A DNA stretch of 64,000 nucleotides from positions 1 through 64,000 of the forward strand of contig CAMSTY010000004.1 of the NCBI GenBank assembly GCA_947063875.1. Reading direction: 5' to 3'. Positions 26,062 through 40,078 of the stretch are shown piece after piece. Position 1 is the stretch's first letter, and each line of letters starts with the position of its first letter. This stretch comes from an uncultured bacterium. Lineage in GTDB: Bacteria; Bacillota; Clostridia; Lachnospirales; Lachnospiraceae. The notes beneath the pieces were generated by a model. That model searched no databases. It worked only from the letters and a program-made list of their open reading frames with translations, and was not told the origin of the DNA. Made by a program: the position numbers and the translations under genes.

Positions 26062-28362
26062 ATGGTGAAGCGGATGAATCGGGCGTTTGTGTTTCAGAAG
26101 GATGGATATACAAGGACAGAGGGGGAACTTCTGCTGAACGAGACTTTGTTCCATAATGCGAATGGGTATTTTGGCGTGAGGGGGAATTTTGAGGAAGGGT
26201 ATCCTCCGGGCCAGGCTACGGTCAGGGGACAATATGTGAATGGGTTTTATAATTTCTCGGAGATGAAGCAGCCAGAAAAGCATTATGGGTTTCCGGAACA
26301 GAAGCAGACGATGGTGAATAGCTTTGATACCCAGACGATGGTACTGACAGTGGAAGGGGAGCGGGTGGATTTGTTTCAGGGGGAGGTTCTGGAGTTCAGC
26401 CGTGTTCTGGATATGAAAAAGGGGATTACCATCCGGCGGTTTGTGTGGGAATCGCCAAAAGGTAGACAGGTGGAGGTTTGCATTACGCGTATGGCTTCTT
26501 TTGAAATGCTTCCTCTTTTTACCATCGAGTATCAGGTTACGCCCCTGAATTTTTCAGGGAAAGCCTGGATGGAATCGGTTCATTCCGGGGATGTGTCCAA
26601 TTATTTTAATCCTAAGGATTCCCGGGTGGCGGGGGAGAAAATTACTCATCTGCGAGTGGCAGAGCGGGAGATGACGGAGGATGGTTTTAGCCTGATCCGG
26701 TCAAAGACGCTGAAATCGGGACTGGAGATTGCCAGTGTGACGGCCCATCTTCTGTCAGAGGAGTATACGGCAAAGAGCCAGGTAGGGGAGAAGGAGATTG
26801 TGCAGTTTTTTGAATTCCCCCTGAGAGAGAAGGTTCCGGTTACGGTGACAAAATATACCGTTACCTGCGATTCTATCCGGTATTTGGATGTAAAGGGTAC
26901 GGCGGCAGACCTGATGAGAAAGAGTTTGGGCAGGCCTTTGGATTACTGGTATCAGTGTCAGGAGGATTACCTGGATAAATTTTGGGAAAATGCAGAGATT
27001 GAGATTATCGGGGATGAGGAATTGAACCTTTCTCTGCATTATAACCTGTATCAGCTTCTCCAGTCCGTAGGTAAGGATGAGTATTGTAACATCGGCGCCA
27101 AAGGTCTGAGCGGCGAGGGGTATGAGGGGCATTATTTTTGGGATACGGAAATGTATATTGTTCCCTTTTTCTCTCTTGCCTGGCCGGAAACGGCGAAAAA
27201 TCTTTTGTCCTACCGCTATCAGATTCTGGACAGGGCCAGAGCCAATGCCCGGGTGATGGGGTATCTCAAAGGGGCGCTCTATCCTTGGAGGACCATTAAT
27301 GGAGATGAATGCTCGGGGTATTATCCCTCTGGCAGCGCCCAGTACCATATTAATGGAGATATTTCTTATGCGGCGGTTCAGTATTATCTGATTACGGGGG
27401 ATTGGGATTTTATGGTTTCCAAAGGAGCGGAGATTCTCCTGGAGACGGCCAGGATGTGGTATGACCTGGGGAATTTTTATCAGGGGAGCTTTCAGCTTCA
27501 TGATCTTACGGGACCGGATGAGTACAGCTGTGTGGTGAACAACAATTATTATACCAATCTGACAGCCAAGCATAATCTGGAATGGGCGGCGAAGATTTAC
27601 CGGAGGCTGAAGGCCCAGGGGCAGCTGGAGGATCTGGAGAGAAGGATCGGGATTGAGGAGGAGGAAATCCTGGGATTTGAGGAGGCGGCGGAGAAAATGC
27701 TGCTGCTCTATGACGAAGTCCTGGATATCAATCCCCAGGATGACAGTTTCCTTTCTAAGAAGGAGTGGGATTTCAGCCAGGAGGCGAAGGGAAACGGGCC
27801 GATCATGCAGTGGAATCATTTGTACCGGCTGTATCGGTATCAGGTGTGCAAGCAGGCGGACACGGTGCTGGCTCATATGATTTTTGAGGATGCCCAGAAG
27901 GTGAGTACCATGAAGAATTCCTTTGACTATTATGAGAAGCGGACGACTCATGACTCTTCTCTTTCCCGGTGTATTTTCGGAATCATGGCATCTAAGCTGG
28001 GAGAGAAGAAAAAGGCCTATGAGTATTTTGATTTTTCCTCGAAGCTGGACATTCTGAATTCTCAGCATAATACCAAGGATGGGATTCACACGGCCAATAT
28101 GGGCGGAACCTATATGGGGATTGTCTATGGATTCCTGGGATTCAGGGTGAAGGAAACGGGATTTTACTTTATGCCCTCTCTTCCTGAGCAGTGGGAGAGG
28201 TGCCGGCTTCGGCTTCAGCTTTTGGGCAGCCGGTTGGAGATCACGGTGACAGGGACGGAGTGCATGTTCCGGCTGATTGAGGGAACGCCGGTGAGGCTTT
28301 TCGTCTACGGAAGAGAGTATGAGGTGGAAAAGGAACTGACAGTTCCTTTGGAGGAGTGGTAA
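26062..28362 (+). CDS. glycoside hydrolase family 65 disaccharide phosphorylase
   Basis: A protein of up to 766 residues of GH65 (maltose, trehalose, kojibiose and nigerose phosphorylases). It has the N-terminal beta-sandwich start LFHNANGYFGVRGNFEEG, the (alpha/alpha)6 barrel with GHYFWDTEMYIVPFF and RTINGDECSGYYPSGSAQYH; Glu416 in GDECS is the likely catalytic acid. The enzyme splits an alpha-glucoside with phosphate, giving beta-glucose-1-phosphate plus the other sugar. The beta-phosphoglucomutase gene behind it fits exactly. The first ATG is almost touching GGGAAAGG, so the ATG at 26074 is a real alternative start. Which disaccharide is cut cannot be read here; the YYPSGSAQYHINGDISYA stretch resembles the trehalose/kojibiose/nigerose side of the family more than maltose phosphorylase. 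Confidence 0.93.
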   Translation: MVKRMNRAFVFQKDGYTRTEGELLLNETLFHNANGYFGVRGNFEEGYPPGQATVRGQYVNGFYNFSEMKQPEKHYGFPEQKQTMVNSFDTQTMVLTVEGERVDLFQGEVLEFSRVLDMKKGITIRRFVWESPKGRQVEVCITRMASFEMLPLFTIEYQVTPLNFSGKAWMESVHSGDVSNYFNPKDSRVAGEKITHLRVAEREMTEDGFSLIRSKTLKSGLEIASVTAHLLSEEYTAKSQVGEKEIVQFFEFPLREKVPVTVTKYTVTCDSIRYLDVKGTAADLMRKSLGRPLDYWYQCQEDYLDKFWENAEIEIIGDEELNLSLHYNLYQLLQSVGKDEYCNIGAKGLSGEGYEGHYFWDTEMYIVPFFSLAWPETAKNLLSYRYQILDRARANARVMGYLKGALYPWRTINGDECSGYYPSGSAQYHINGDISYAAVQYYLITGDWDFMVSKGAEILLETARMWYDLGNFYQGSFQLHDLTGPDEYSCVVNNNYYTNLTAKHNLEWAAKIYRRLKAQGQLEDLERRIGIEEEEILGFEEAAEKMLLLYDEVLDINPQDDSFLSKKEWDFSQEAKGNGPIMQWNHLYRLYRYQVCKQADTVLAHMIFEDAQKVSTMKNSFDYYEKRTTHDSSLSRCIFGIMASKLGEKKKAYEYFDFSSKLDILNSQHNTKDGIHTANMGGTYMGIVYGFLGFRVKETGFYFMPSLPEQWERCRLRLQLLGSRLEITVTGTECMFRLIEGTPVRLFVYGREYEVEKELTVPLEEW

Positions 28363-29003
28363 TGAGATATCAGTGCGGAATTTTTGATCTGGACGGGGTA
28401 TTGGTGGATACGGCAAAATACCATTATCTGGGCTGGAAACGGCTGGCGGACCGGCTGGGATTTCCCTTTACCTTGCAGCAGAATGAGGCGCTTAAGGGAA
28501 TCTCCCGTATGGCTGCCCTGGAACTGCTGCTGGAAATGGGAGGTTTGAACAAGAATTTTTCTCAGCAGGAAAAGGAGCAGATGGCAGCAGAAAAGAACAA
28601 GTATTATCTGGAATACATCGATCAGCTGGGGGAGGAGGAATTGCTTCCCGGGGTGATGGAGGCCTTTGAGAGGATGAGGAGGAATGAGATTAAGATTGCT
28701 TTAGGCTCCGCCAGCAAAAATGCCCGGCTGATCTTAAAACGGCTACATATTGAGGAATATTTTGACATGGTGATAGACGGGACATTGGTGAAAAAGGCAA
28801 AGCCAGACCCGGAGGTATTTACGCTGTCAGCAGACAAGCTGGGGATTTTCTATGAACGCTGTGTGGTTTTTGAGGATTCGCTGGCCGGCCTTATGGCAGC
28901 CAAGGCGGTGGGGATGACGGCAGTGGGAATCGGGGAGAAGGAGAATCTGCCCATCGCGGATTATCTGTGTAAGAATGTAGGAGAATTCGTGTGGGAGCAG
29001 TGA
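28362..29003 (+). CDS. pgmB: beta-phosphoglucomutase
   Basis: A 213-residue HAD enzyme that converts beta-glucose-1-phosphate to glucose-6-phosphate. The nucleophile motif is FDLDGVLVDTAKYHY (Asp9 and general acid Asp11), with a helical cap, LGSASKNARLILKRL, KKAKPDPEVF (Lys motif III) and FEDSLAGLMAAKAVGM (motif IV). The ATG at 28362 overlaps the GH65 stop (TAATG). A GTG six bases earlier is possible but less likely. Together with GH65 it feeds glycolysis without spending ATP on one hexose. Confidence 0.95.
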   Translation: MRYQCGIFDLDGVLVDTAKYHYLGWKRLADRLGFPFTLQQNEALKGISRMAALELLLEMGGLNKNFSQQEKEQMAAEKNKYYLEYIDQLGEEELLPGVMEAFERMRRNEIKIALGSASKNARLILKRLHIEEYFDMVIDGTLVKKAKPDPEVFTLSADKLGIFYERCVVFEDSLAGLMAAKAVGMTAVGIGEKENLPIADYLCKNVGEFVWEQ

Positions 29004-29014
29004 GACGGAATGTG

Positions 29015-29065
29015 GCCGGCAAGGGGCGCCTGTGGCGTGCTTTGTCGGCTTTTCTTTATTTTACC
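29015..29065 (+). terminator. terminator of the ABC-GH65-pgmB operon
   Basis: GCCGGCAAGGGGCGCC (29015-29030), loop TGT, then GGCGTGCTTTGTCGGC (29034-29049), pairing with some G-T pairs, followed by TTTTCTTTATTTT. Confidence 0.8.
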
Positions 29066-29094
29066 GGCTTTTTTTGCCTGTATCCGGATATACT

Positions 29095-29247
29095 TATAGT
29101 GAACGACAAAAATTTTTTATTTTTGGCGTTCAGTGCGCCGATTTTGCGTTGCGTGAAGCGCAACACTTACCTTTGCAAAATCGTGCGCATCCCCCGGAGG
29201 GATTATAGTAAATGACAAATTATTTTGTCGTTTACTATAGTATAATC
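29095..29247 (+). repeat. structured intergenic element, copy 1
   Basis: Four hairpins in a row. P1: TGAACG (29100) with CGTTCA (29127), continued by CAAAAAT/ATTTTTG. P2: GCGCCGATTTTGC (29135-29147) with GCAAAATCGTGCGC (29175-29188), with one bulged base, enclosing hairpin GTTGCG/CGCAAC. P3: TCCC/GGGA around CCGG. P4: GATTAT...AAATGACAAA with TTTTGTCGTTT...ATAATC (29201-29247). The outer ends TATAGTGAACGACAAAA and TTTTGTCGTTTACTATA also form terminal inverted repeats, as in a MITE. A diverged copy with the same folds lies at 48261-48406. It ends 30 bases before the bile salt hydrolase gene and contains its only TATAAT (29241-29246). Confidence 0.7.
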
Positions 29248-29276
29248 AATAATCAGGAAACAGGGAGGAATTGTGT

Positions 29277-30251
29277 ATGTGTACGGCTGCTGTTTATAAA
29301 ACCAAGGATTTTTATTTCGGAAGGACACTGGATTATGACTATTCCTACGGGGAGGAGGTTACGGTGATGCCCCGCAATTATCCGATTCTTTTCCGTGGGA
29401 CCGGCTATTGGGACAGGCACTATGCGGTCGTTGGCATGACTCATATTGCTCAGGATTATCCGCTTTTTTATGATGGCGTGAACGAGAAGGGCCTTGCCAT
29501 GGCAGGTCTCAACTTTGTAGGAAACGCCAGCTATCGGGCCCCGGTCCCGGGAATGGATAATATCGCGGTTTTTGAACTGATTCCGTGGATACTTGGAAGC
29601 TGTGCCAGCGTGAAGGAGTGCAAAAAAAGGCTGGAAAGGGTAAATCTTACGGATGTTCCCTTTGACGCAAGCCTGCCGGCGGCGCAGCTGCACTGGCTGA
29701 TTGCGGATAAAGAGGAGACAATCACTCTGGAGGCAATGGCGGACGGGGTTCATATCTATGACAATCCGGTCGGGGTGCTGTCTAACAATCCCCCGTTTCC
29801 CGATCAGATGTTCCAGCTGAACAATTATATGCACTTGTCGGTGAAGCCGCCGCAGAATCTTTTTGCGAAGGGCCTGTCCCTGGATGTCTACAGCCGGGGA
29901 ATGGGGGCCTTGGGACTTCCGGGGGACCTTTCCTCCCAGTCCCGGTTCGTCCGGGCGGCGTTTGTGCGGATGAATTCGGTATCCGGTGATTCGGAGGAGG
30001 AGAGTGTGGGACAGTTTTTTCATATCCTGGGTTCCGTGGAGCAGACGAATGGCTGCTGTGAACTGGGAGACGGCCAGTGTGAGAAGACGATTTATACTTC
30101 CTGCTGCAATACGCAGCAGGGGATTTATTATTATACCACGTACGGGAACCGGCAGATTACCGGTGTGGATATGCACCGGGAGAATCTGGAGGGGAGCAGG
30201 CTGTGCCATTACCCGCTGATTGGCCGGGAACAGATCCGGATGCAGAACTAA
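29277..30251 (+). CDS. cbh: bile salt hydrolase (choloylglycine hydrolase)
   Basis: A 324-residue Ntn-hydrolase. It cuts the glycine or taurine amide of conjugated bile salts. After loss of Met1, Cys2 becomes the nucleophile (MCTAAVY). Other active-site residues line up with the Clostridium perfringens enzyme: Arg16 and Asp19 in FGRTLDYDYS, Asn79 in MAGLNF, Asn170 in GVLSNNP, and Arg223 in SSQSRFVRAAF. LGLPGDLSSQSRF is a strong bile salt hydrolase signature. No signal peptide, so it acts in the cytoplasm. The ATG at 29277 is chosen because Cys must be residue 2 and GGGAGGAA lies 8 bases upstream. Penicillin V acylase is the alternative in this family but fits less well. Confidence 0.93.
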   Translation: MCTAAVYKTKDFYFGRTLDYDYSYGEEVTVMPRNYPILFRGTGYWDRHYAVVGMTHIAQDYPLFYDGVNEKGLAMAGLNFVGNASYRAPVPGMDNIAVFELIPWILGSCASVKECKKRLERVNLTDVPFDASLPAAQLHWLIADKEETITLEAMADGVHIYDNPVGVLSNNPPFPDQMFQLNNYMHLSVKPPQNLFAKGLSLDVYSRGMGALGLPGDLSSQSRFVRAAFVRMNSVSGDSEEESVGQFFHILGSVEQTNGCCELGDGQCEKTIYTSCCNTQQGIYYYTTYGNRQITGVDMHRENLEGSRLCHYPLIGREQIRMQN

Positions 30252-30487
30252 ATGGCGGAGGCTGCCGTAACTGCATAAACAATGTTATTTTTGCATAAAA
30301 ATACTTTCCTATATGAGTCTGAAAACAAATAAATGCTGGCGGGAATTTATCGGCAAGATAAAATAAACAAAAAAAGCCGACAAATTGTATCGACAATTTT
30401 TGACATAATTTGCGAAAATATCCGGGATCAAACCATAACCACAACAGAAAAGTTGTTACACGAACAGCAAAATAATTGTGAAAAGGA

Positions 30488-30516
30488 TTGACAATGGGAT
30501 TTCCTTCATGTATAAT
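30488..30516 (+). promoter_or_regulatory. consensus sigma-A promoter of the 5-oxoproline operon
   Basis: Perfect TTGACA (30488-30493), 17-base spacer, perfect TATAAT (30511-30516), 36 bases before the NRAMP-like gene. The rest of the 300-bp gap (30252-30487) shows no gene and no clear structure. Confidence 0.9.
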
Positions 30517-30551
30517 AACACGAAACATCTGAACACAAGGAGGATTATCCT

Positions 30552-31760
30552 ATGAAAGAGAAAAAGAGTGGTGGGGCACTACTGGGAGCGGCATTTCTGA
30601 TGGCGACATCAGCGATCGGACCTGGCTTTCTGACTCAGACGGCTCAGTTTACAGGTACACATAAAGGCAGTTTTGGATTTGTAATTCTGGTATCGATTAT
30701 CCTGGCGGCGATCGCTCAGATGAATATCTGGCGGGTCTTGTGTGTGTCCGGCCTGCGCGGACAGGACGTGGCCAATAAGGTGCTTCCGGGATTGGGATAT
30801 TTTGTAGCGTTCATGGTGGCGCTGGGAGGCCTGGCATTCAACATCGGCAATGTGGGCGGCGGCGCGCTGGGTTTTAACACTCTGCTGGGAATTCCGACTC
30901 AGGCCGGATGCGCGTTGGCAGGCATTATCGCAATCGCTGTGTTCCTGGTAAAGAATGCCAAGTCTGCTATGGATACCCTGGCCAAGGTACTGGGCGGTAT
31001 CATGATCGTGGTTATTTTCGGCATTATCATTGTGGTGAAGCCGCCTGTAGGAGACGCGCTGAAGAATACCTTCGTGCCGTCAGCAGGAGCTCCTAACCTG
31101 GTTCCGGCGATTATCACCTTGCTTGGCGGAACGGTGGGAGGCTATATCACCTTCTCCGGCGCCCATCGCCTGATCGACGGAGGGGTTACCGGTGAGGAGA
31201 ATTTAAAGGAGATCAATAAGAGTTCCCTGATGGGTATGGGGATCGCCACCATTGTCCGTATTTTCCTGTTTTTGGCAGTGCTGGGTGTGGTCACAAGGCT
31301 GGCTGAAGGCGTGACGCTGGATGCTTCCAACCCGGCAGCGGATGCGTTCCGCCTGGGCGCGGGGGAATTGGGATATCGTTTTGCAGGCCTGGTGCTGCTG
31401 TGTGCAGCCATTACCTCCATCATCGGCGCCGCTTATACTTCGGTTTCCTTTTTAAAGACCTTCCATCCGGCCATTGACAAGAATGAGAACTGGGTGATCA
31501 TCGGCTTTATCGCTGTTTCTACGGTGATTATGATTCTTCTGGGACAGCCGGCCAAGCTGCTGGTGCTGGCGGGCGCGCTCAACGGCCTGATTCTGCCGAT
31601 CACTTTGGGAATCTGCCTGATTGCGGCGAAGAAGAAATCCATTATGGGCGAAAAGTATTCCCATCCCATGGTTCTTTTGATTCTGGGAGCCATTGTAGTG
31701 GTTATCTCCGCTTACCTGGGAATCACCACCTTTGTATCCAATATGGGTAAGCTGATCTGA
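30552..31760 (+). CDS. NRAMP-fold transporter, YcsG-like, lacking the metal-site signature
   Basis: A 402-residue membrane protein with about 11 helices, related to the NRAMP/MntH family. In metal-carrying NRAMPs helix 1 has DPGN and helix 6 has MPH; here the matching places read ATSAIGPGFLTQT and GGYITFSGAHRLIDGG, so the ligating Asp, Asn and Met are missing. B. subtilis ycsG, an NRAMP relative, likewise sits with pxp genes (ycsF, kipI, kipA). The protein is therefore more likely a carrier for an organic substrate such as 5-oxoproline than a Mn importer (inference). AAGGAGG precedes the ATG by 8 bases. It is the first gene of the operon. Confidence 0.85.
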   Translation: MKEKKSGGALLGAAFLMATSAIGPGFLTQTAQFTGTHKGSFGFVILVSIILAAIAQMNIWRVLCVSGLRGQDVANKVLPGLGYFVAFMVALGGLAFNIGNVGGGALGFNTLLGIPTQAGCALAGIIAIAVFLVKNAKSAMDTLAKVLGGIMIVVIFGIIIVVKPPVGDALKNTFVPSAGAPNLVPAIITLLGGTVGGYITFSGAHRLIDGGVTGEENLKEINKSSLMGMGIATIVRIFLFLAVLGVVTRLAEGVTLDASNPAADAFRLGAGELGYRFAGLVLLCAAITSIIGAAYTSVSFLKTFHPAIDKNENWVIIGFIAVSTVIMILLGQPAKLLVLAGALNGLILPITLGICLIAAKKKSIMGEKYSHPMVLLILGAIVVVISAYLGITTFVSNMGKLI

Positions 31761-31896
31761 AGAATCTAATAGACGAAAAGTTACAGAGCCTGTTATTTCC
31801 CGCAAAGGTGTAATCACGGATATGATTGCGCCTTTTTGGGTATCTGAAAGAACGGATGGCGGGTTTTTTGAGAAAGGAGTTGAATCAAAAGATATT

Positions 31897-32622
31897 ATGC
31901 AGAATATCAGAATTTTGACAGCGGGGGATTCTTCTTTGCTGATCGAGTTTGGAAATGAGATCAGTCCGGAGATCAACCGCAGGATTGCGGCGATTGTGAA
32001 GCTGCTGCGGGAGCAGCATATTGAGGGCGTGGTGGACGTGATTCCCGCCTTCTGTTCTCTGCTGGTCAATTATGATCCCCGGGTGATCCGGTATGAAAAG
32101 ATGAAGAAGCGGATGGAGAGCATGCTGCGGGTGGATATCAAGGTAGGGGAAGGAAAGCGGAAGATTTTTGAGATTCCTGTATTATATGGCGGAGAATATG
32201 GGCCGGATCTGGGGAATATTGCAGAGCACGCGGGGATGAGCGAGGAGGAAGTGGTGAAGATTCACAGTTCCCAGGACTATCTGATCTATATGCTGGGATT
32301 TTTGCCGGGCTTTTGTTATCTGGGCGGACTGGACGAACGGATTCACACCCCCAGGCTTGCCAATCCCCGGCTGAAGATTCGCGCCGGAAGCGTGGGGATC
32401 GGCGGTTCCCAGACCGGAATCTATCCTTTGGATTCTCCGGGAGGCTGGCAGCTGATGGGGATGACGCCGGTAAAGACCTATGACCCGGAGCGGGAGGTGC
32501 CGATCCTGGTGGAGGCGGGGAATTATATCCGCTTTGTGCCGGTGGATGAGGCGGAATACAGGCGGATTCAGGCGCAGGTGGAAGACGGAAGCTATCAGTG
32601 TGTGATTCACGAGGAGGTGTAG
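31897..32622 (+). CDS. pxpB: 5-oxoprolinase subunit PxpB (KipI-like; carboxyltransferase subdomains C/D)
   Basis: A 241-residue protein of the KipI/AHS1 family, with GDSSLLIEFG near the start and the core motif LGFLPGFCYLGGLDERIHTPR around residue 140, then SVGIGGSQTGIYPLDSPGGWQ. PxpB works with PxpC and PxpA to open 5-oxoproline to glutamate using ATP. The same domain forms part of the carboxyltransferase of urea carboxylase. The ATG at 31897 is about 17 bases from AAAGGAG, rather far, so the start is uncertain. It lies 1 bp ahead of pxpC. Confidence 0.93.
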   Translation: MQNIRILTAGDSSLLIEFGNEISPEINRRIAAIVKLLREQHIEGVVDVIPAFCSLLVNYDPRVIRYEKMKKRMESMLRVDIKVGEGKRKIFEIPVLYGGEYGPDLGNIAEHAGMSEEEVVKIHSSQDYLIYMLGFLPGFCYLGGLDERIHTPRLANPRLKIRAGSVGIGGSQTGIYPLDSPGGWQLMGMTPVKTYDPEREVPILVEAGNYIRFVPVDEAEYRRIQAQVEDGSYQCVIHEEV

Positions 32623-32623
32623 C

Positions 32624-33628
32624 ATGGGAATTCGCATTTTAAAAGCCGGTATGATGACAACCGTGCAGGACCTGGGGCGCACCGGCTATCAGAGCCAGGG
32701 TTTTTCCGTGGCCGGGGTGATGGATGTGCGTTCGTTTAAGATTGCCAACCTTCTTTTAGACAATCCGGAAAATGAGGCTGTGCTGGAGTTTGCCCTGATC
32801 GGCCCTACGCTGGAGTTTACGGCAGGGACCTTGATCGCCATTACCGGCGGGGATTTCCAGCCTACGATCAACGGCGAGCCGGCGCCCATGTATACGGCCA
32901 TCGATATTCATAAAGGCGACGTATTGAAGTTCGGCAGCGCCCGGACAGGCAGCCGGGGATATATTGCATTTTCCAGCTACCTGAAGGTTCCGGTGGTGAT
33001 GGGCAGCCGCTGCACCAATATGAAGAGCTCCATCGGCGGGTTTAAGGGGAGAAAGCTGCAGGATGGGGATTATATCGGCTTCCGTATCAAACGGAGATAC
33101 TTACCTTTCTTCCTTTCCCGGACTCTGGAACTGGATGAGTTTAATCAGGACCACGTGACTTTGCGGGTGGTGCTGGGGCCTCAGGATGAGAGATTCAGCA
33201 AACAGGGGATCGAGACGTTTTTGAACAGTGAATATACGGTGACCAGCGATTTTGACCGTATGGGATGCCGGCTGGAGGGGCCTTTTATCGCAAGAAAAGA
33301 GGCCTCGGACATGATTTCCGACGGGATTGCTTTTGGCTCGATTCAGGTGCCGTCTCACGGAAAGCCGATTATTCTTCTGTCAGACCGTCAGACCACGGGA
33401 GGGTATCCTAAGATTGCCACCGTGGCTTCCGTGGACATTCCCTGGCTGGTGCAGCGCAAAACCGATCATAAGGTGCGGTTTAAAGCGATCAGCGTGGAGG
33501 ATGCCCAGAAGCTTTATCTCAAAGAACTGGAGGAACTGAATCAGATGAGAAAGAAGATTCATCAACCCTGCAAAGAGGTGCTGGAGTGCCGCCAGGTGTC
33601 CAGAAGGATTCGGAGACTGTTTCCGTAA
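32624..33628 (+). CDS. pxpC: 5-oxoprolinase subunit PxpC (KipA-like; carboxyltransferase subdomains A/B)
   Basis: A 334-residue KipA/AHS2 family protein. Typical motifs: MTTVQDLGRTGYQSQGFSVAG at the start (quoted in part: VQDLGRTGYQSQGFSVAG), DNPENEAVLEF, GSRCTNMKSSIGGFKGRKLQ in the middle, and SDRQTTGGYPKIATV near residue 255. With PxpB it makes the two halves of a carboxyltransferase-like fold. The C-terminal about 40 residues are charged. The gene is 1 bp after pxpB and 103 bp before the biotin carrier gene. Confidence 0.93.
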   Translation: MGIRILKAGMMTTVQDLGRTGYQSQGFSVAGVMDVRSFKIANLLLDNPENEAVLEFALIGPTLEFTAGTLIAITGGDFQPTINGEPAPMYTAIDIHKGDVLKFGSARTGSRGYIAFSSYLKVPVVMGSRCTNMKSSIGGFKGRKLQDGDYIGFRIKRRYLPFFLSRTLELDEFNQDHVTLRVVLGPQDERFSKQGIETFLNSEYTVTSDFDRMGCRLEGPFIARKEASDMISDGIAFGSIQVPSHGKPIILLSDRQTTGGYPKIATVASVDIPWLVQRKTDHKVRFKAISVEDAQKLYLKELEELNQMRKKIHQPCKEVLECRQVSRRIRRLFP

Positions 33629-33731
33629 GGGGAGGGTTTTGGGAAGATGACTGAGGGATTGGAAGAATGAATGCGTCCGTGACAGGGTTTCGTATCGGAT
33701 AGGAATTATGACAGGAAAGGAAGCGAATACT

Positions 33732-34181
33732 ATGGATTTGGAAAAAATTGCAGGTTTGGTAAAGATAATAGAAGATTCTTCTCTGAAGGAGTTCAGCTAT
33801 AAAGAGGGCGAGATCAAGATTACCATGAGCAAACGGGACAATGCCCCGATTGTGGCGGCCGGGGTCCCTTCCATGTCGCCTGTGGGGATGGCTCCGGCGG
33901 CGTCGCCGGTGCAGGGGACGGCAGAGGAGGGGGAGGAGGAGTCTCTTTTCATCACCTCGCCGATCGTGGGTACTTTCTATTCGGCGGCGGCGCCGGATGT
34001 GCCGGCTTTTGTCCGGGTAGGCGACCGGGTGAAAGAGGGGCAGACGGTCTGTATCCTGGAGGCCATGAAGCTGATGAATGAGATCCAGTGTGAATATGAT
34101 TGTGAGATCGAGGCGGTTTTGGTCAGCAACGAACAAAAGGTGGAGTATGGACAGCCCTTGTTCCGTGTAAAGAAAATCTAA
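33732..34181 (+). CDS. accB: biotin carboxyl carrier protein
   Basis: A 149-residue AccB-like protein: a helical N terminus (MDLEKIAGLVKIIEDSS), a Pro/Ala-rich linker at about residues 40-70, then the biotinyl domain starting ITSPIVGTFYSAAAPD. Lys113 in LEAMKLMNE is the biotin site. I chose the ATG at 33732 (GGAAAGGAAG about 8 bases upstream) over the in-frame ATG at 33708. Its place between pxpC and a biotin carboxylase, with no acetyl-CoA carboxylase transferase genes (accA/accD) nearby, suggests it serves the Pxp enzyme rather than fatty acid synthesis. Confidence 0.93.
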   Translation: MDLEKIAGLVKIIEDSSLKEFSYKEGEIKITMSKRDNAPIVAAGVPSMSPVGMAPAASPVQGTAEEGEEESLFITSPIVGTFYSAAAPDVPAFVRVGDRVKEGQTVCILEAMKLMNEIQCEYDCEIEAVLVSNEQKVEYGQPLFRVKKI

Positions 34182-34200
34182 ATGCCAGGAGGTTGGAGTG

Positions 34201-35574
34201 ATGATTAAAAAGGTTTTGATTGCCAACCGGGGCGAGATTGCGGTGCGGATTATACGCGCCTGCCGGAATATGGGGATTTTCAGCGTGGCGATTTATTCCA
34301 AGGAGGATGAGAACAGCCTTCACGCCCAGCTGGCAGACCAGCGGGTCTGTATCGGAGAGGGGCCGGCCAAGGACAGCTACCTGAATATGGACCGGATTAT
34401 CAGCGCAGCCCTGAATGTGGATGCGGATGCCATTCATCCAGGTTTTGGGTTTCTGTCGGAGAACAGTTCCTTTGCGAGAAAATGCCGGGAAAATGAACTG
34501 ATCTTTATCGGGCCGGACCCGGATGTGATTGACCGGATGGGAAATAAGTCCCAGGCCAGGCAGACCATGATGAATGCGGGAGTCCCGGTGGTTCCGGGAA
34601 CCAAGGAGCCGGTCTACGATGTGGAGAAAGGAAAGATGCTGGCGGAGGAGATTGGCTATCCGATCATGATTAAGGCTTCTTCCGGCGGCGGCGGCAAGGG
34701 GATGCGGGTGGCTGCCAATGAGGAGGAATTTGAATTCCAGTTTAATATGGCCCAGCGGGAGTCGGCGAATGCCTTTGGGGATGATACCATGTATCTGGAA
34801 CGTTTTATTGGAAATCCCCGCCATGTGGAGATCCAGATTATGGCGGATGCCCATGGAAATGTAGTGGCCCTGGGAGAGCGTGACTGCTCGGTCCAGCGAA
34901 ATCATCAGAAGCTGATTGAAGAGTCTCCGTCTCCGGCCATTGACGAGGGCACTCGTCAGAAAATGAATGAATACGCGGTGCTGGCGGCAAAGACTGTGGG
35001 ATACACCAATGCCGGGACCATCGAGTACATTGTAAGCCCCGGAGGGGAGTTTTATTTTATGGAGATGAATACCCGGATTCAGGTGGAGCATGGGGTCACG
35101 GAGATGGTGACGGGCACGGACCTGATTATCGAGCAGATCCGGGTGGCTATGGGGGAGGCCTTAAGCTTTTCCCAGGAGGACATCCGCCTGCGGGGCCATG
35201 CCATCGAATGCCGGATCAATGCGGAGGTGCCGGGGCACAATTTTATGCCAAGTCCCGGGGTGGTTCAGAACATCCATCTCCCGGCAGGAAACGGGGTGCG
35301 GGTGGATACGGCCTTGTATGCCGGCTATCGGATTCCGGCGGAGTATGATTCCATGATCGCCAAGGTGATTGTCCATGCCCCGGACCGTCCGGCGGCAATC
35401 CGCAAGATGCTGGGTGCCTTAGATGAGATGGTGATCACCGGGGTGGATACTAATCTTGATTTCCAGTTCCAGATTATGAGGAGCAAAATTTTCCGGGAGG
35501 GAAAGGCGGATACTGGCTTTATTGAAAAGTTCATGAATTTAAAACAGCCGGTTCCCGATGTGCCGGAGATATAA
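34201..35574 (+). CDS. accC: biotin carboxylase
   Basis: A 457-residue ATP-grasp enzyme that carboxylates biotin on the carrier protein using bicarbonate and ATP. Visible: KKVLIANRGEIAVRIIRACR at the N terminus, HPGFGFLSEN, the glycine-rich ATP loop KASSGGGGKGMRV, ERDCSVQRNHQKLIEE, and the catalytic MEMNTRIQVEHGVTEMVTG. Full length for the family. The ATG at 34201 is 8 bases after AGGAGG; GTG at 34198 is the alternative. It lies 19 bp after accB and 35 bp before pxpA. Confidence 0.95.
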   Translation: MIKKVLIANRGEIAVRIIRACRNMGIFSVAIYSKEDENSLHAQLADQRVCIGEGPAKDSYLNMDRIISAALNVDADAIHPGFGFLSENSSFARKCRENELIFIGPDPDVIDRMGNKSQARQTMMNAGVPVVPGTKEPVYDVEKGKMLAEEIGYPIMIKASSGGGGKGMRVAANEEEFEFQFNMAQRESANAFGDDTMYLERFIGNPRHVEIQIMADAHGNVVALGERDCSVQRNHQKLIEESPSPAIDEGTRQKMNEYAVLAAKTVGYTNAGTIEYIVSPGGEFYFMEMNTRIQVEHGVTEMVTGTDLIIEQIRVAMGEALSFSQEDIRLRGHAIECRINAEVPGHNFMPSPGVVQNIHLPAGNGVRVDTALYAGYRIPAEYDSMIAKVIVHAPDRPAAIRKMLGALDEMVITGVDTNLDFQFQIMRSKIFREGKADTGFIEKFMNLKQPVPDVPEI

Positions 35575-35609
35575 AAGGTGAACATTTGAAAAAGAAATGA
35601 GGAAATAAT

Positions 35610-36377
35610 ATGTACCACGTAGATCTAAACAGCGATTTGGGAGAAAGCTTTGGAAGATATACCCTGGGTATGGACGAGAGGGTGATTCCTCTGATTACCT
35701 CCGCCAATGTGGCCTGCGGCTATCATGCCTCGGACCCGGTGGTGATGGCGAAGACCGTTTCCATGGCAAAGGAGGCCAAAATCCGGGTGGGCGCCCACCC
35801 GGGGTTTCCGGATTTGATGGGATTTGGCCGCAGAAATATGGCCGTGACGCCTGCAGAGGCAAAGGACTATGTATTGTATCAATTGGGCGCCTTAGATGGG
35901 TTTTGCCGTTCTGCAGGAATCCGGATGCAGCATGTAAAGCCTCACGGCGCCTTGTATAATATGGCAGCCAAGGACTATGAGCTGTCAAAAGGGATCTGCC
36001 AGGCCATAGAGGAATTCGACAAAGACCTGATTGTCCTGGCTCTAAGCGGAGGCCAGCTGGCCCGGGCGGCGCAGGATATGGGACTTCGCACGGCCCTGGA
36101 GGTATTTGCAGACCGGGCGTACGAGGAGGACGGGACCCTGGTGGGCCGGGGGAAGCCGGGAGCCATGATTACCGACGAGGAAGAGGCAATTTCCCGGGTA
36201 ATCCGTATGGTCAAGGAGCAGGCCGTCACTGCCGTCACCGGCAAAGACATCCCCATCCGTGCTGACTCCGTCTGCGTTCATGGAGACGGGGAGAAAGCCC
36301 TGGCCTTCGTGGAGAAAATCCGGCAGGCCCTTGGCAGGGAAGGAATTGCGCTGTGCCCGTTGGAGGAGCTGTGCTGA
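35610..36377 (+). CDS. pxpA: 5-oxoprolinase subunit PxpA (LamB/YcsF family)
   Basis: A 255-residue LamB/YcsF protein with the hallmark start VDLNSDLGESFGRYTLGMDE, then SANVACGYHASDP and HPGFPDLMGFGRRNM, KPHGALYN and EVFADRAYEEDGTLVGR. PxpA has a metal-dependent (beta/alpha) barrel and carries out the ring-opening part of ATP-dependent 5-oxoprolinase with PxpBC. It closes the operon; product is glutamate. Confidence 0.95.
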   Translation: MYHVDLNSDLGESFGRYTLGMDERVIPLITSANVACGYHASDPVVMAKTVSMAKEAKIRVGAHPGFPDLMGFGRRNMAVTPAEAKDYVLYQLGALDGFCRSAGIRMQHVKPHGALYNMAAKDYELSKGICQAIEEFDKDLIVLALSGGQLARAAQDMGLRTALEVFADRAYEEDGTLVGRGKPGAMITDEEEAISRVIRMVKEQAVTAVTGKDIPIRADSVCVHGDGEKALAFVEKIRQALGREGIALCPLEELC

Positions 36378-36461
36378 TCTTTTTCCTGTCTGAGGCCATT
36401 GCGATACCGTCAAGGCGATGGTTTCCTTATATTTTCTGACTTTGGAAGGAAGTGCTTCGGG

Positions 36462-36511
36462 AACAGGATTGTCCGGGATTGTTTAAAACAGCAATCCCGG
36501 TCAATCCTGTT
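36462..36511. repeat. strong 20-bp-stem hairpin in intergenic region
   Basis: AACAGGATTG-T-CCGGGATTG (36462-36481) pairs with CAATCCCGG-T-CAATCCTGTT (36492-36511): a stem of 19 paired bases with one T-T mismatch and a 10-base loop. No clean T-run follows. It may end the pxp message or be the core of a small repeat. The rest of 36378-36592 holds no gene. Confidence 0.7.
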
Positions 36512-36592
36512 TGTGGGTCTGCCCTTCCGAGAAGTATCTGATCAGGAATGTCCTTTTCGGAAGATAAAAATTACGATCTCTGCATTTTCTGC

Positions 36593-36621
36593 TTGAATCT
36601 TCCCGACCCATGAATTATAAT
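36593..36621 (+). promoter_or_regulatory. promoter of the Gfo/Idh-EamA pair
   Basis: TTGAAT (36593-36598), 17-base spacer, TATAAT (36616-36621). It lies across the in-frame ATG at 36610, which rules that codon out as the start and supports GTG 36691. Confidence 0.75.
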
Positions 36622-36690
36622 AGAAAAATTGACATAAAGCCGGAAAAGCTGTATCTAAATTTCTGGAAAAAGGAGAGAAAGGAACGGAAA

Positions 36691-37668
36691 GTGAAGGTTG
36701 GAATATTAGGTGCCGGAATGATGGTAAATATGTTGATGGAGACCATAGACCAGCTGAATTTCTCCTATACGGCAGTATTGGGAAGAAGGGAATCGGAGGA
36801 AAAGGCCAGAAAACTTTGCCGAGATCATGGGTTGGATGCTTGTTTTTTTGATTATGAGGAGTTGCTGGAAAGCGATGTGGATACGATCTATGTGGCTCTG
36901 CCCAATCATCTTCACAGCGGGTTTGCGAAAAAAGCGCTGCTTTACGGTAAACATGTGATCGTCGAAAAGCCGGCCACAGCCAACGCCGCGCAGCTGAAAG
37001 AACTTATGGAGATTGCCAAAGAGCAGAAGAGGATGCTTTTTGAGGCGATGAACATTCATTATCTCCCGGCATATCTGTCTTTGAAGGAGGCTTTGCTTCA
37101 GGTGGGACGACCTAAAATTGTGAGTTTGAATTACAGCCAGTATTCTTCCCGTTATGATTCCTTCCGGGATGGACAGATCCTGGCAGCGTTTGATCCCATG
37201 AAGGCCGGAGGGGCTGTGATGGATTTGAATGTTTACAATGTTCACGCTGTCGTGGGGCTTTTCGGAAGGCCGAAAAGGGTATCCTATATGGCAAATGTAG
37301 AGAGAGGGATCGACACCAGCGGGGTTTTGGTTCTGGATTACGGGGATTTTAAGGTGCCTTCCATTGGGGCCAAAGACTGCAAGGCTCCTGTCCGCTGTAC
37401 GATTCAGGGGGAAGAGGGATGCTTTGTGATATCTGGCCCTATGAATCAGATGGAAGGTTATGAACGCATTCTGAATGATGGCAGGACCGTGGGATATCAG
37501 GTGGATAAGCCAAAGAACCGGCTGTATTATGAATTTATGGAGTTTCAAAGAATGATTGAGGAAAAGGACTGGGAAAAAGAAGCGGCGATGCTGGAAACAA
37601 GTCTGATCGTAGCGGAGATTTTGGAGGAAGCGAGAAGGCAGAATGGGATTTTTACGGATTTCAGGTGA
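36691..37668 (+). CDS. Gfo/Idh/MocA-family oxidoreductase
   Basis: A 325-residue NAD(P)-dependent dehydrogenase. The start is GTG 36691, with AGAAAGGAA 6 bases before it. The Rossmann fold begins VKVGILGAGMMVNML; the family motif YVALPNHLHSGFAKKAL is followed by VIVEKPAT (catalytic Lys in EKP). The C-terminal alpha/beta domain has GGAVMDLNVYNVHAVVGLFG. Substrates in this family are sugars and polyols and cannot be inferred here. It is followed 4 bp later by a drug/metabolite exporter-type carrier. Confidence 0.88.
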   Translation: MKVGILGAGMMVNMLMETIDQLNFSYTAVLGRRESEEKARKLCRDHGLDACFFDYEELLESDVDTIYVALPNHLHSGFAKKALLYGKHVIVEKPATANAAQLKELMEIAKEQKRMLFEAMNIHYLPAYLSLKEALLQVGRPKIVSLNYSQYSSRYDSFRDGQILAAFDPMKAGGAVMDLNVYNVHAVVGLFGRPKRVSYMANVERGIDTSGVLVLDYGDFKVPSIGAKDCKAPVRCTIQGEEGCFVISGPMNQMEGYERILNDGRTVGYQVDKPKNRLYYEFMEFQRMIEEKDWEKEAAMLETSLIVAEILEEARRQNGIFTDFR

Positions 37669-37672
37669 AAAG

Positions 37673-38611
37673 ATGAGTAAAAAAATTGATTTAACCAATA
37701 TGAAGGTAGTTCTTCTGGCAGCAGGCCTCTGCTGCTTTTTGTGGGGAAGCGCTGCGCCGGCCATTAAGATCGGATACCGGCTGTTTCAGATCGATTCGGC
37801 AGATACGGCTTCGATTTTGATGTTTGCAGGAATTCGTTTTCTGCTGGCGGGATTTCTGGTGATTGCATACCACAGTGCGGTAAGCGGCCGCTGGATTATG
37901 CCGCCGAAAGGTTCGGGAGTGGCGGTTGGCAGCCTGGCTCTGACCCAGACCGTTTTGCAATATCTGTTTTATTATGTGGGACTGTCCCACGCCAGCGGTG
38001 TGCACAGCGCGATTATCACCGGCACCAATGTGTTTTTCTCCATGCTGTGCGCCAGCCTGATTTTCAGGTATGAAAAGCTGGATGCAAATAAGATCGCGGG
38101 GTGCGTTCTTGGATTTCTGGGAATTGCGATTGTGAATCTGGCAGGGGCAGGCTCGGAAAAGATGTTTTCGATCTCCTTTTTCGGGGAGGGGTTTGTGCTG
38201 ATGGCCCAGATTTTCTATGCCGTTTCCGGCTCACTGATAAAGAAATATGCGAAAGAGTTTGATGTGGTTACGCTGTCCGGGTACCAGTTTATGGCCGGAG
38301 GCACGGCGTTGCTGATCATCGGCAAGGTCTGCGGCGGCACGCTGTCGGGGGCAGTAGGGCCTTCTGCCTTTGCACTTCTTTTGTATATGGGGATTTTATC
38401 GGCGGTTGCCTATACTTTGTGGGGAGTGTTGCTGAAATATAATCCGGTGAGCCGTGTGACGGTTTTTGGATTTATGAATCCTATGTTCGGCGTGATTTTA
38501 TCGGCCATTTTCCTGGGGGAGACCGGGCAGGCGCTGACCTGGAATACCCTGGCGGCGTTGATTTTGGTATGCCTGGGAATCTATGTGGTGAACAGAGAGA
38601 AGAAGCACTGA
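37673..38611 (+). CDS. EamA/DMT-family transporter
   Basis: A 312-residue protein with ten hydrophobic helices in two EamA repeats; the first begins GLCCFLWGSAAPAIKIGYRL, the second FFGEGFVLMAQIFYAVSGSLIKK. Such carriers move amino acids, nucleosides or other metabolites, mostly outward. The ATG at 37673 follows AGGTGAAA. It shares a promoter with the Gfo/Idh gene and ends at a strong terminator. Confidence 0.88.
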   Translation: MSKKIDLTNMKVVLLAAGLCCFLWGSAAPAIKIGYRLFQIDSADTASILMFAGIRFLLAGFLVIAYHSAVSGRWIMPPKGSGVAVGSLALTQTVLQYLFYYVGLSHASGVHSAIITGTNVFFSMLCASLIFRYEKLDANKIAGCVLGFLGIAIVNLAGAGSEKMFSISFFGEGFVLMAQIFYAVSGSLIKKYAKEFDVVTLSGYQFMAGGTALLIIGKVCGGTLSGAVGPSAFALLLYMGILSAVAYTLWGVLLKYNPVSRVTVFGFMNPMFGVILSAIFLGETGQALTWNTLAALILVCLGIYVVNREKKH

Positions 38612-38625
38612 TGAAGGAGACCATG

Positions 38626-38696
38626 AAAGAAATCCCGCAATATAGAACGTATATTGTAGAAAATACGTTTTATGCTGCGGGATTTCTTTATTTTTT
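38626..38696. terminator. bidirectional terminator between convergent genes
   Basis: AAAGAAATCCCGCA (38626-38639) pairs perfectly with TGCGGGATTTCTTT (38676-38689), with a second inner stem AACGTAT/ATACGTT. T-rich on the right and A-rich on the left, it serves EamA from one side and the wall-protein gene from the other. Confidence 0.9.
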
Positions 38697-38700
38697 GCTT

Positions 38701-39378
38701 TTAGTAATTGGATACGCCTGGCCCTTTGCTGGCGAGAGAATTTCCGGAAGATACGACCCGGCTCCCGGAGGAGTCAGAACTCTGCGAGGAACTTTGGCCT
38801 GAGGCCTGAGCGCCGGCGTTGTCAGAGTCGTAATAATTGTTTACGGACCCGGTGGAGGTGCATATTCCGTCAGGTCCGAAGGTATAGTTGGCCCCATCGA
38901 TATTTTTGGAGATGCCGGCCACCATCCGTCCGTCTCCGGCCGGGTCCAGATAATAGAAGGCGCCGTTCTTTTTCAGCCATCCGGTCAGCTTTTTGCCGTC
39001 GCTTTTGAAGAAGTACCAATAGCCGTCAATCTCAATGGCTGAGTTGAGCACGCATTTGCCGGAATCCGGCCGCAGGTAATACCAGTCTCCGTCAATTTGA
39101 CGCCAGCCGGTGGTAAGCATGCCGTTCTCCTGCATGTAGTAATATTCTCCGTCCAGCTTCAGCCATCCGGTCACCATGGAACCATCGGAAAGAAAATAAT
39201 AGTAGTTGCCATCCACAACGGCCAGGCCGGTAGTCAGGCTTCCATCCGGCTGATAATAGTAGGTTTTGCCGTTGGACTGGCTCCATCCGGCGGCCAGCGT
39301 CGGGAATACCGGCATAATGGCAAGGCTTCCGGCCAACCCCAAAAGCGCTATATTTTTTGCCGTTTTTTTCAATTTCAT
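38701..39378 (-). CDS. secreted choline-binding/glucan-binding repeat protein
   Basis: A 225-residue exported protein. The signal peptide is MKLKKTAKNIALLGLAGS followed by a hydrophobic core and an AxA cleavage site (TLAAG). From residue 30 come about seven aromatic repeats of roughly 20 residues (GWLKLDGEYYYMQENGMLTT, then GWRQIDGDWYYLRPDSGK), the CW-binding/choline-binding pattern. The last 35 residues are rich in Ser and Gly. No enzymatic domain, so it is probably a surface adhesin or wall-bound spacer. GGAGG lies 8 bases before the ATG at 39378. Confidence 0.88.
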   Translation of the reverse strand: MKLKKTAKNIALLGLAGSLAIMPVFPTLAAGWSQSNGKTYYYQPDGSLTTGLAVVDGNYYYFLSDGSMVTGWLKLDGEYYYMQENGMLTTGWRQIDGDWYYLRPDSGKCVLNSAIEIDGYWYFFKSDGKKLTGWLKKNGAFYYLDPAGDGRMVAGISKNIDGANYTFGPDGICTSTGSVNNYYDSDNAGAQASGQSSSQSSDSSGSRVVSSGNSLASKGPGVSNY

Positions 39379-39415
39379 CGGGTTATCCTCCTTGTAACGA
39401 AAAATGCTTATACCT

Positions 39416-39446
39416 ATTATAAAGGTTGGAACGGTTCCAGGGTCAA
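39416..39446 (-). promoter_or_regulatory. candidate promoter of the wall-protein gene
   Basis: Minus strand TTGACC (39446-39441) and TATAAT (39421-39416), 19 bases apart (17-18 if the -10 is read as TTTATA or TTATAA). GGAAC-CGTTCC, a small palindrome, sits in the spacer and could be an operator. Confidence 0.5.
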
Positions 39447-39508
39447 GGCCTTTTTTACGAGCCGGCAATCCATTAGAATTTATATACTCAATAATCCATA
39501 TTGATTTG

Positions 39509-40078
39509 CTATGATGTATGCATATCAGAAAACCACAAAACGGAGTAATCATAGCGATGCCATTCTAAAAAATGATCTGTGAATTTGGCAAAAAATCTAA
39601 AAAAAGAACCGTATAACCATAATAAGCAGATAACGTCCCGATAAAAAACACAAAAGAACGTACTGTTGCAAAGAAAGCCTTTGTTTCCATTCATCATCAT
39701 TTCATGCAAGGGGCGCAGATAGCAGATTACTTCATGATCACAAATTACATTCTTTGAAAATCCCGTAAGTTCCCGTTTCCCTGCCACGTCCTCTGTCAGA
39801 CCAAGCATAATTTTCTTGCTGATATTAAAGCCGCGGTAGTCCAGTGCACTATCGTCAGACTGTACGCAGGCATGGTTATCGCCCGGATTAAATAAAACAA
39901 CATTCCCCTGCCCAATCGTGTAGCCTATGTTTCTGCAGGACAGGCAGCGTTCCCCGTTCTCTACAAAACCAATCACAGAATGCTCATGGAAATGGTTGGG
40001 AAACGGCTGAACAATCCCCTCCTTGCCAAAAACTATTGGAAGCCAAAAGCCTTTAAAATTCTTGTAAGATATCTTCAT
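39509..40078 (-). pseudogene. decayed AraC-family regulator (sensor domain only)
   Basis: From MKISYKNFKGFWLPIVFG the frame reads a good cupin-type AraC ligand domain: FPNHFHEHSVIGFVENGERC, VVLFNPGDNHACVQ and YRGFNIS. After HEMMMNGNK (about 39690) the text turns into unrelated Phe/Trp-rich sequence and stops. The DNA-binding AraC domain is missing. It is a truncated or frameshifted gene. Confidence 0.75.

What the first reader, a model, noticed from the sequence alone, without database searches (positions are those of the whole stretch)
30552..36377. 5-oxoproline operon encodes every part of a split biotin-dependent carboxylase
PxpB and PxpC belong to the families that make up the carboxyltransferase subdomains of urea carboxylase. 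Here they share an operon with a biotin carrier (Lys113 in EAMKLM) and a biotin carboxylase, plus PxpA, under one perfect promoter. No acetyl-CoA carboxylase transferase genes are near. The parts equal urea carboxylase cut into pieces, so 5-oxoproline may be activated by carboxylation before PxpA opens the ring; this would give a mechanism for the ATP need of PxpABC.
Basis: partly seen in the sequence, partly recalled or inferred. Interest (0 to 1): 0.75.

Follow-up and report, generated by a model that had tools for sequence, protein, structure and literature searches.

The report
Biotin carboxylase wired into 5-oxoprolinase operon
A gut bacterium's operon for recycling the cyclised amino acid 5-oxoproline carries its own biotin-carboxylating enzyme pair, which probably feeds the ring-opening enzyme, although many related bacteria have the ring-opening genes without such a pair.

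Summary
In detail: one exact-consensus promoter, then NRAMP-pxpB-pxpC-accB-accC-pxpA. The genome has a separate accB/accC with accDA in a fab operon, so this pair is extra. It looks dedicated to pxp: in 299 family genomes the 18 AccC at >=68% identity (window included) all lie in pxp operons. In three genomes it is the only biotin carboxylase and only weak AccA matches are seen; in the best of these (98% complete) the one other carboxyltransferase belongs to a Na+-pump decarboxylase. Linkage recurs in Alphaproteobacteria, a haloarchaeon and a Lactiplantibacillus plasmid. PDB 9YX5 has a PxpB/PxpC pair bound to a mycobacterial biotin carboxylase complex. Best reading: AccB/AccC supply carboxybiotin to PxpB/PxpC; chemistry and substrate are inferred. 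The gene set is in print for S. aureus, with accBC read as fatty-acid genes (PMC11315280, passages).

The parts
30488..30516 (+). sigma-70 promoter, TTGACA-17-TATAAT
   Evidence: 12 of 12 consensus positions; only exact pair in the window
30552..31760 (+). NRAMP-family transporter (YcsG-like)
   Evidence: PF01566 98.4 bits; far below the MntH cut-offs. B. subtilis YcsG was reported as a Mn2+ importer (PMC10448178, passages); likeness to YcsG itself was not tested
31897..32622 (+). pxpB (CT subdomains C/D); ORF open from 31822
   Evidence: PF02682 260.6; TIGR00370 229.4 over 145.55
32624..33628 (+). pxpC (CT subdomains A/B)
33732..34181 (+). accB, biotin carboxyl carrier; ORF open from 33708
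   Evidence: TIGR00531 152.6 over 115.2
34068..34070 (+). codon of the biotin-accepting Lys113 in EAMKLM
34201..35574 (+). accC, biotin carboxylase (ATP-grasp); GTG at 34198 also possible
   Evidence: TIGR00514 658.7 over 626.5; 14 catalytic or ligand residues (positions recalled) kept
35092..35094 (+). codon of Gly299 (458-aa numbering) in QVEHG; Pro in fatty-acid AccC
   Evidence: G in 36 of 36 window-type, P in 17 of 17 FAS AccC compared
35610..36377 (+). pxpA (LamB/YcsF)
   Evidence: PF03746 348.1; NF003814 379.8 over 226

Best explanation
The operon encodes a biotin-carboxylase-coupled variant of the PxpABC lactam-opening enzyme. AccC uses ATP and bicarbonate to carboxylate the biotin on AccB Lys113; PxpB-PxpC, members of the urea carboxylase carboxyltransferase families, move the carboxyl group to the ring amide of 5-oxoproline (or a close lactam/amide); PxpA opens the activated ring; the carbamate loses CO2, giving glutamate. 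Shown here: gene content, likely operon, distinct BC lineage with intact active site, a separate fatty-acid accBCDA set, a genome where no other free carboxyltransferase was found, and recurrent linkage. Shown by others: a PxpB/PxpC pair bound to an AccA3-containing complex (9YX5). Inferred: that AccB-AccC charge PxpBC in this organism, the N-carboxylation step, and the substrate.
For: Second accBC with accDA in a fab operon. Family sample: 22 of 61 PxpC genomes have separate accB-accC next to pxpBC; 18 of these 22 hold another BC, 4 do not; 3 of those 4 (G362, G423, G477) have only weak AccA-model matches of 28.9-40.9 bits, and G362's only PF01039 protein, best match mmdA though below its cut-off, sits beside oadG-, mmdC- and Na+-pump beta-like genes. 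Of 28 matches to the window AccC in 299 genomes, the 18 at 68% identity or more (window included) are all at pxp-linked places; the 10 at 64-67% are in genomes not among the 61 with PxpC. Pxp-linked AccC of seven families (Lachnospiraceae, Oscillospiraceae, Aerococcaceae, Carnobacteriaceae, Turicibacteraceae, Peptostreptococcaceae, Eggerthellaceae) form one 23-row clade without fatty-acid AccC (99/98), with seven nearly fixed changes in the window type. On the PxpBC tree the linkage label needs 11 changes, at least 10 on starred branches. Linkage also in 9 of 16 plasmid regions opened, including an archaeon. 18 of 19 PxpC invariant columns are kept in K. lactis urea carboxylase. 9YX5.
Against: 36 of 76 phylum and 10 of 61 family genomes with PxpC show no BC, so PxpABC must have a route without it (some are drafts, and G151, G199, G221 and G376 have only partial PxpC). 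In the phylum sample only 3 of 74 genomes whose neighbourhood was read have the linkage. No PxpB/PxpC column of 530 follows linkage: the best goes the same way in 4.6 of 10 independent pairs on average, no better than the opposite extreme of 4.9. The same operon type exists with and without accBC (L135 type; L140, L145, L154, L155, L165 lack it). Two pxp-linked AccC groups, L135-type and L093/L113, fall outside the dedicated clade. G426's only BC is the linked one although it has accDA. 9YX5 shows binding, not transfer. No biochemistry for this operon was found.
Confidence: 0.5

Rival explanations
1. Same machine, other substrate: AccBC-PxpBC is a carboxylase of some urea-like or lactam compound other than 5-oxoproline, and PxpA hydrolyses the carboxylated product.
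For: Only family membership points to 5-oxoproline; PxpC is under the PxpC equivalog cut-off (236.7 against 500), but so are all nine other PxpC tested, linked or not. The L135 PxpB lacks motifs that are invariant in eight other PxpB.
Against: The window PxpB is over the PxpB cut-off and PxpA over the NF003814 cut-off; many unlinked relatives share an NRAMP-B-C-A order.
Confidence: 0.2
2. Extra acetyl-CoA carboxylase: the linked AccB-AccC work with the genome's AccDA and tie fatty-acid synthesis to amino-acid supply.
For: AccB and AccC pass the acetyl-CoA carboxylase models. G426 has accDA and only the linked BC. The S. aureus paper lists the operon's accBC as fatty-acid synthesis genes (PMC11315280, passages).
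Against: G362, G423 and G477 keep the linked pair but have only weak AccA-model matches (that these lie in a decarboxylase was checked for G362 only); the linked BC at 68% identity or more was not seen outside pxp operons in 299 genomes and falls in its own clade; Pro to Gly beside the biotin-binding loop (loop role recalled). Relatives G320, G468, G538 have fab-accDA operons and no BC found, so G426 need not use the linked one.
Confidence: 0.13
3. PxpABC works alone by phosphorylating 5-oxoproline, as assumed for canonical PxpABC (PMC13274462, passages), and accBC is a passenger.
For: Genomes with PxpABC and no BC found; no residue change with linkage.
Against: Linkage arose or was lost at least 10-11 times on the PxpBC tree, with varied gene orders in several phyla, and linked BC and carrier keep their active sites in nearly all loci.
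Confidence: 0.12
4. AccBC is a regulatory or scaffold partner: PxpBC docks on the biotin complex without carboxyl transfer.
For: 9YX5 title reports MSMEG_0435-0436 bound to a long-chain acyl-CoA carboxylase.
Against: Catalytic residues of BC and the biotin site are kept in nearly all linked loci, which scaffolding would not need.
Confidence: 0.05

Closest known systems
PxpABC (prokaryotic 5-oxoprolinase; E. coli YbgJKL, B. subtilis YcsF-KipI-KipA)
   Different: Here a biotin carboxylase and carrier are built into the operon; most relatives read in the phylum sample lack them
Urea carboxylase / urea amidolyase (K. lactis 3va7, 5i8i)
   Different: Split into four proteins, ACC-type BC and BCCP, and a LamB/YcsF hydrolase in the operon; fused urea-carboxylase-like proteins occur separately in the same family (L159, L163, L179-L181)
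S. aureus six-gene operon with pxpB, pxpC, pxpA, accB, accC (PMC11315280, passages read)
   Same: Same five genes in a six-gene operon, promoter bound by CcpE
   Different: There accBC was read as fatty-acid synthesis; the order and sixth gene were not seen by me
M. smegmatis MSMEG_0435-0436 on the long-chain acyl-CoA carboxylase (PDB 9YX5; title and chain names seen)
   Same: PxpB/PxpC homologues bound to an AccA3-containing complex
   Different: AccA3 carries BC and BCCP and is shared by acyl-CoA carboxylases (PMC11001197, passages); function of the docking unknown to me
Caprolactamase CapAB (PMC8453981, passages read)
   Same: ATP-dependent lactam opening that needs bicarbonate; a carboxylated lactim is one of three mechanisms proposed
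   Different: Another protein family, said there not to be similar to PxpABC; no biotin

Membership tests
PxpABC 5-oxoprolinase | PxpA, PxpB and PxpC family proteins together | tested here: met
   PF03746, PF02682, PF02626 and TIGR00370 over cut-off
PxpABC 5-oxoprolinase | PxpC equivalog model NF045499 over its cut-off (500) | tested here: inconclusive
   236.7 bits; nine other linked and unlinked PxpC also fall below (206.7-314.9), so the cut-off does not discriminate here
PxpABC 5-oxoprolinase | 5-oxoproline-dependent ATP hydrolysis and glutamate formation | not testable with these tools
   needs enzyme assay
Biotin-dependent carboxylase (as a class) | BC, BCCP with biotin lysine, and a CT component | tested here: met
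   AccC, AccB EAMKLM, PxpB/PxpC of CT families
Biotin-dependent carboxylase (as a class) | carboxyl transfer to an acceptor | not testable with these tools
   needs enzyme assay
Urea carboxylase | TIGR02712 over its cut-off (1303.85) in one protein | tested here: not met
   four separate proteins score 67.7, 170.5, 25.6 and 533.5; works like it in modules, not a member
Acetyl-CoA carboxylase | AccB and AccC models passed | tested here: met
   TIGR00531 and TIGR00514 over cut-off
Acetyl-CoA carboxylase | AccD/AccA carboxyltransferase in the same operon | tested here: not met
   none found on this contig; accDA sits with the other accBC on contig 53

The most novel reading that the evidence does not exclude
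A biotin-dependent lactamase: PxpBC is a true carboxyltransferase that N-carboxylates 5-oxoproline, so that biotin, not phosphorylation, couples ATP to ring opening; and in genomes without biotin carboxylase PxpBC could draw carboxybiotin from the carrier of a Na+-pump decarboxylase (44 of 46 such genomes have at least one biotin/lipoyl-domain match), with direct ATP use as a parallel route elsewhere.
Probability: 0.3. Interest if true: 0.82.

Novelty: new variant of a known kind. Interest (0 to 1): 0.62.

Why it matters
How PxpABC, a widespread bacterial 5-oxoprolinase, spends its ATP is unsettled; PxpB and PxpC of this window have no nucleotide-binding family match, only carboxyltransferase and PxpB/PxpC ones. 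An operon type with its own biotin carboxylase, in some genomes the only one found and with no full AccA match, makes a carboxylation mechanism directly testable by avidin and bicarbonate assays. If true it would re-assign pxp-linked accB/accC pairs now annotated as fatty-acid genes in several bacteria, and it warns against inferring acetyl-CoA carboxylase from accBC alone.

Tried and rejected
Rejected: universal need of PxpABC for a biotin carboxylase. Rejected: linked accBC as this genome's fatty-acid set. Tried: residues of PxpB/PxpC that go with accBC linkage. The first run's output was cut; I repeated it on 530 columns: largest mean excess 4.2 of 10 pairs (PxpC Glu49, PxpB Ser140), short of the six differing pairs a sign test needs, and opposite extremes reach 3.6, so none is claimed. 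Tried: proof that L135-type accC was recruited separately from a fatty-acid accC; bootstraps favour it (97/93, 97/90 and 96/91 on the nested branches), but the AU test does not reject one clade of the pxp AccC tested (p 0.167, 0.177), so it is favoured only. The tree has long branches that meet; I lean, which left out 21 of its 68 rows (long rows, all urea-carboxylase and alphaproteobacterial/archaeal rows, and some others). One search dropped 35 of 152 unlinked loci for short flanks. No Rfam family at gathering score in 29000-38700. Fold searches: other folds listed (cyclophilin-like, cupin) cover part of PxpC only and were not used.

Papers: searches listed no paper whose title, abstract start or passages seen by me propose a biotin-dependent PxpABC; one search returned nothing, and searches listed 20 of 125 and 20 of 171 mostly unrelated papers. 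Passages only were seen of PMC13274462, PMC8453981, PMC10448178, PMC11001197, PMC11581127, PMC12427679, PMC13118682, PMC11315280, PMC12393781 and PMC3742457. The founding PxpABC paper (Niehaus 2017) is not held and is known to me by citation and recall only.
Full report

IS THE PAIR SPARE OR HOUSEKEEPING? Two biotin carboxylases of this type were found in the genome (PF02785 also finds two; the further matches are 21-27% identical). The other, 64% identical, lies on contig 53 in fabH-acpP-fabK-fabD-fabG-fabF-accB-fabZ-accC-accDA (gene names by my reading of the ORFs, the acc genes).

DEDICATION. In 299 genomes of the same family, 61 have PxpC; I read 70 neighbourhoods plus the window, covering all 61 genomes, some on short contigs. 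Separate accB-accC adjacent to pxpBC occur in 22 genomes, window included. Fused urea-carboxylase-like proteins (L159, L163, L179-L181) and divergent loci (L186, L188, L189) were not counted. Searching the 299 genomes with the window AccC gave 28 matches at E <= 1e-195: the 18 at 68% identity or more (the window itself included) are all at pxp-linked places; the 10 at 64-67% are in genomes not among the 61; L135-type linked AccC fall below this threshold. A careful tree of 47 AccC puts pxp-linked ones of seven bacterial families, one of them an Eggerthellaceae from another phylum, in one clade of 23 rows without fatty-acid AccC (99/98); the L135-type and L093/L113 pxp-linked AccC lie outside it. 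The window type differs from the fatty-acid AccC at seven positions that are at least 92% uniform in each group, among them Gly for Pro after QVEH (36 of 36 against 17 of 17); sister loci L168, L178 and L249 still have Pro and L272 Ala. Of 14 catalytic or ligand residues checked (roles recalled), all are in the window AccC; over 61 linked loci 13 are kept in at least 60 and one, H236, in 55. Every linked carrier found has a Met-Lys biotin site; in L188, L218 and L315 this search found no carrier.

A NATURAL EXPERIMENT. Of the 22 linked family genomes, 18 have a second biotin carboxylase and four (G362, G423, G426, G477) show only the linked one. G362 (98% complete), G423 (93%) and G477 (82%) have no full AccA: their PF03255 matches are 28.9-40.9 bits, formally over the cut-off, inside other frames of 371-515 aa, against 367.6 bits or more for the best match of each of the other 19 linked genomes. 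G362's only PF01039 protein is next to oadG-, mmdC- and Na+-pump-beta-like genes, so I read it as a decarboxylase alpha subunit; this was not checked in G423 and G477. With no AccDA found, PxpBC is the most plausible partner left for the linked AccBC in G362; absence from draft genomes is not proof. G426 points partly the other way: it has accDA with a fab operon lacking accBC, and only the linked BC. But G320, G468 and G538 have fab-accDA operons and no biotin carboxylase found, so that layout evidently can do without one.

SPREAD. Phylum sample: 76 of 249 genomes have PxpC; neighbourhoods of 74 were read (G151 and G221, with broken PxpC, were not fetched; some contigs end close by), and 3 genomes (window, G158, G228) have accBC beside pxpBC. 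A named scan kept the 80 best PxpB relatives, so it is biased to the window type: 33 have an AccC in the locus, one of which (L240) is a separate set with accDA. Named carriers include Eubacterium ramulus ATCC 29099 (L208), Mediterraneibacter catenae (L209), Globicatella sanguinis (L222) and Terrisporobacter petrolearius (L272). I opened 16 of 60 listed plasmid rows (of 743 records), chosen by hand, so this is no rate: 9 have BC and a carrier (L315's by annotation only) with pxpABC (L. plantarum, Thioclava, Bradyrhizobium, a Haladaptatus archaeon, Aureimonas, R. johnstonii, R. phaseoli, A. vitis, Phyllobacterium), 6 have pxpABC alone, and 1 is a fused urea-carboxylase-like protein. On a PxpBC tree of 174 rows (57 linked, 117 unlinked) the label needs 11 changes, at least 10 forced by starred branches.

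PHYSICAL PRECEDENT. PDB 9YX5 holds PxpC and PxpB homologues (chains V and W) in the same entry as AccA3; its title is 'Structure of the long chain acyl-CoA carboxylase complex from Mycobacterium smegmatis with MSMEG_0435-MSMEG_0436 bound'. I saw titles and chain names only; no paper on it was found.

AGAINST THE GENERAL CLAIM. 36 of the 76 phylum genomes with PxpC, including one-contig ones (G019, G034, G187), show no biotin carboxylase; 10 of 61 in the family likewise. G151, G199, G221 and G376 among them have only partial PxpC. Of those 46, 44 still have at least one biotin/lipoyl-domain match, but G017 (97% complete, whole PxpABC in L048) has none. Over 530 PxpB/PxpC columns none follows linkage in 10 independent pairs. 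So the core enzyme can apparently run without a biotin carboxylase, and carboxylation cannot be the general explanation of its ATP need, unless carboxybiotin comes from elsewhere.

MECHANISM. Most likely (0.5): AccC carboxylates AccB-biotin; PxpBC transfers the carboxyl to 5-oxoproline; PxpA opens the ring; CO2 leaves. A bicarbonate-dependent lactamase with a carboxylation option is already described in another family (CapAB, PMC8453981, passages). That paper also reports P. putida oxoprolinase component A polypeptides of 64 and 51 kDa; 51 kDa would suit a biotin carboxylase and 64 kDa the sum of PxpB and PxpC. This is a size coincidence I did not test.

PRIOR ART. A S. aureus six-gene operon with pxpB, pxpC, pxpA, accB and accC is in print (PMC11315280, passages), with accBC read as fatty-acid synthesis. 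A Lactiplantibacillus pentosus paper lists an extra BCCP/BC pair and pxpBC as separate features (PMC12427679, passages). Plasmid records already name PxpC-family proteins 'biotin-dependent carboxyltransferase family protein'. The C. glutamicum paper says phosphorylation by PxpBC is assumed (PMC13274462, passages). I found no paper proposing biotin-dependent 5-oxoproline opening in searches; subscription papers are mostly not held.

VERDICT.

Noticed in passing
L321 (G426), L322 (G538), L323 (G320), L325 (G468): fab operons with accDA but no accB or accC detected; in G320, G468 and G538 no biotin carboxylase is found in the genome. How these make malonyl-CoA is unclear.
   Followed up: partly
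L305:1154-10156 (L. plantarum plasmid p6): pxpB-pxpC-carrier-BC-putative hydro-lyase-pxpA-NRAMP cluster lying between IS30-type transposase genes on a plasmid typed as mobilizable: a possibly mobile 5-oxoproline module.
   Followed up: no
L308, L317, L318: Alphaproteobacterial pxp clusters with two carrier-like genes each (by annotation and place), plus nac regulator and amino-acid ABC transporter genes.
   Followed up: no
L135:7508-8257 (-): A Lachnospiraceae PxpB lacking the GFxPGFxYLGG and AGSVGI motifs of other PxpB. Relatives with PxpB at 32-36% identity to the window occur with and without accBC (L140, L142, L144-L146, L154, L155, L165); their motifs were not inspected.
   Followed up: no
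window 29271-30251: Choloylglycine hydrolase (bile salt hydrolase model NF038245, 457.4 over cut-off 350) just upstream of the operon.
   Followed up: no
window 26062-29003: GH65-family enzyme followed by a HAD hydrolase gene, as in disaccharide phosphorylase/phosphoglucomutase pairs (the pairing is recalled).
   Followed up: no
window 38701-39552 (-): Protein with repeated W-x-G/Y-Y type motifs, like cell-wall-binding repeat proteins (family recalled, not scanned).
   Followed up: no
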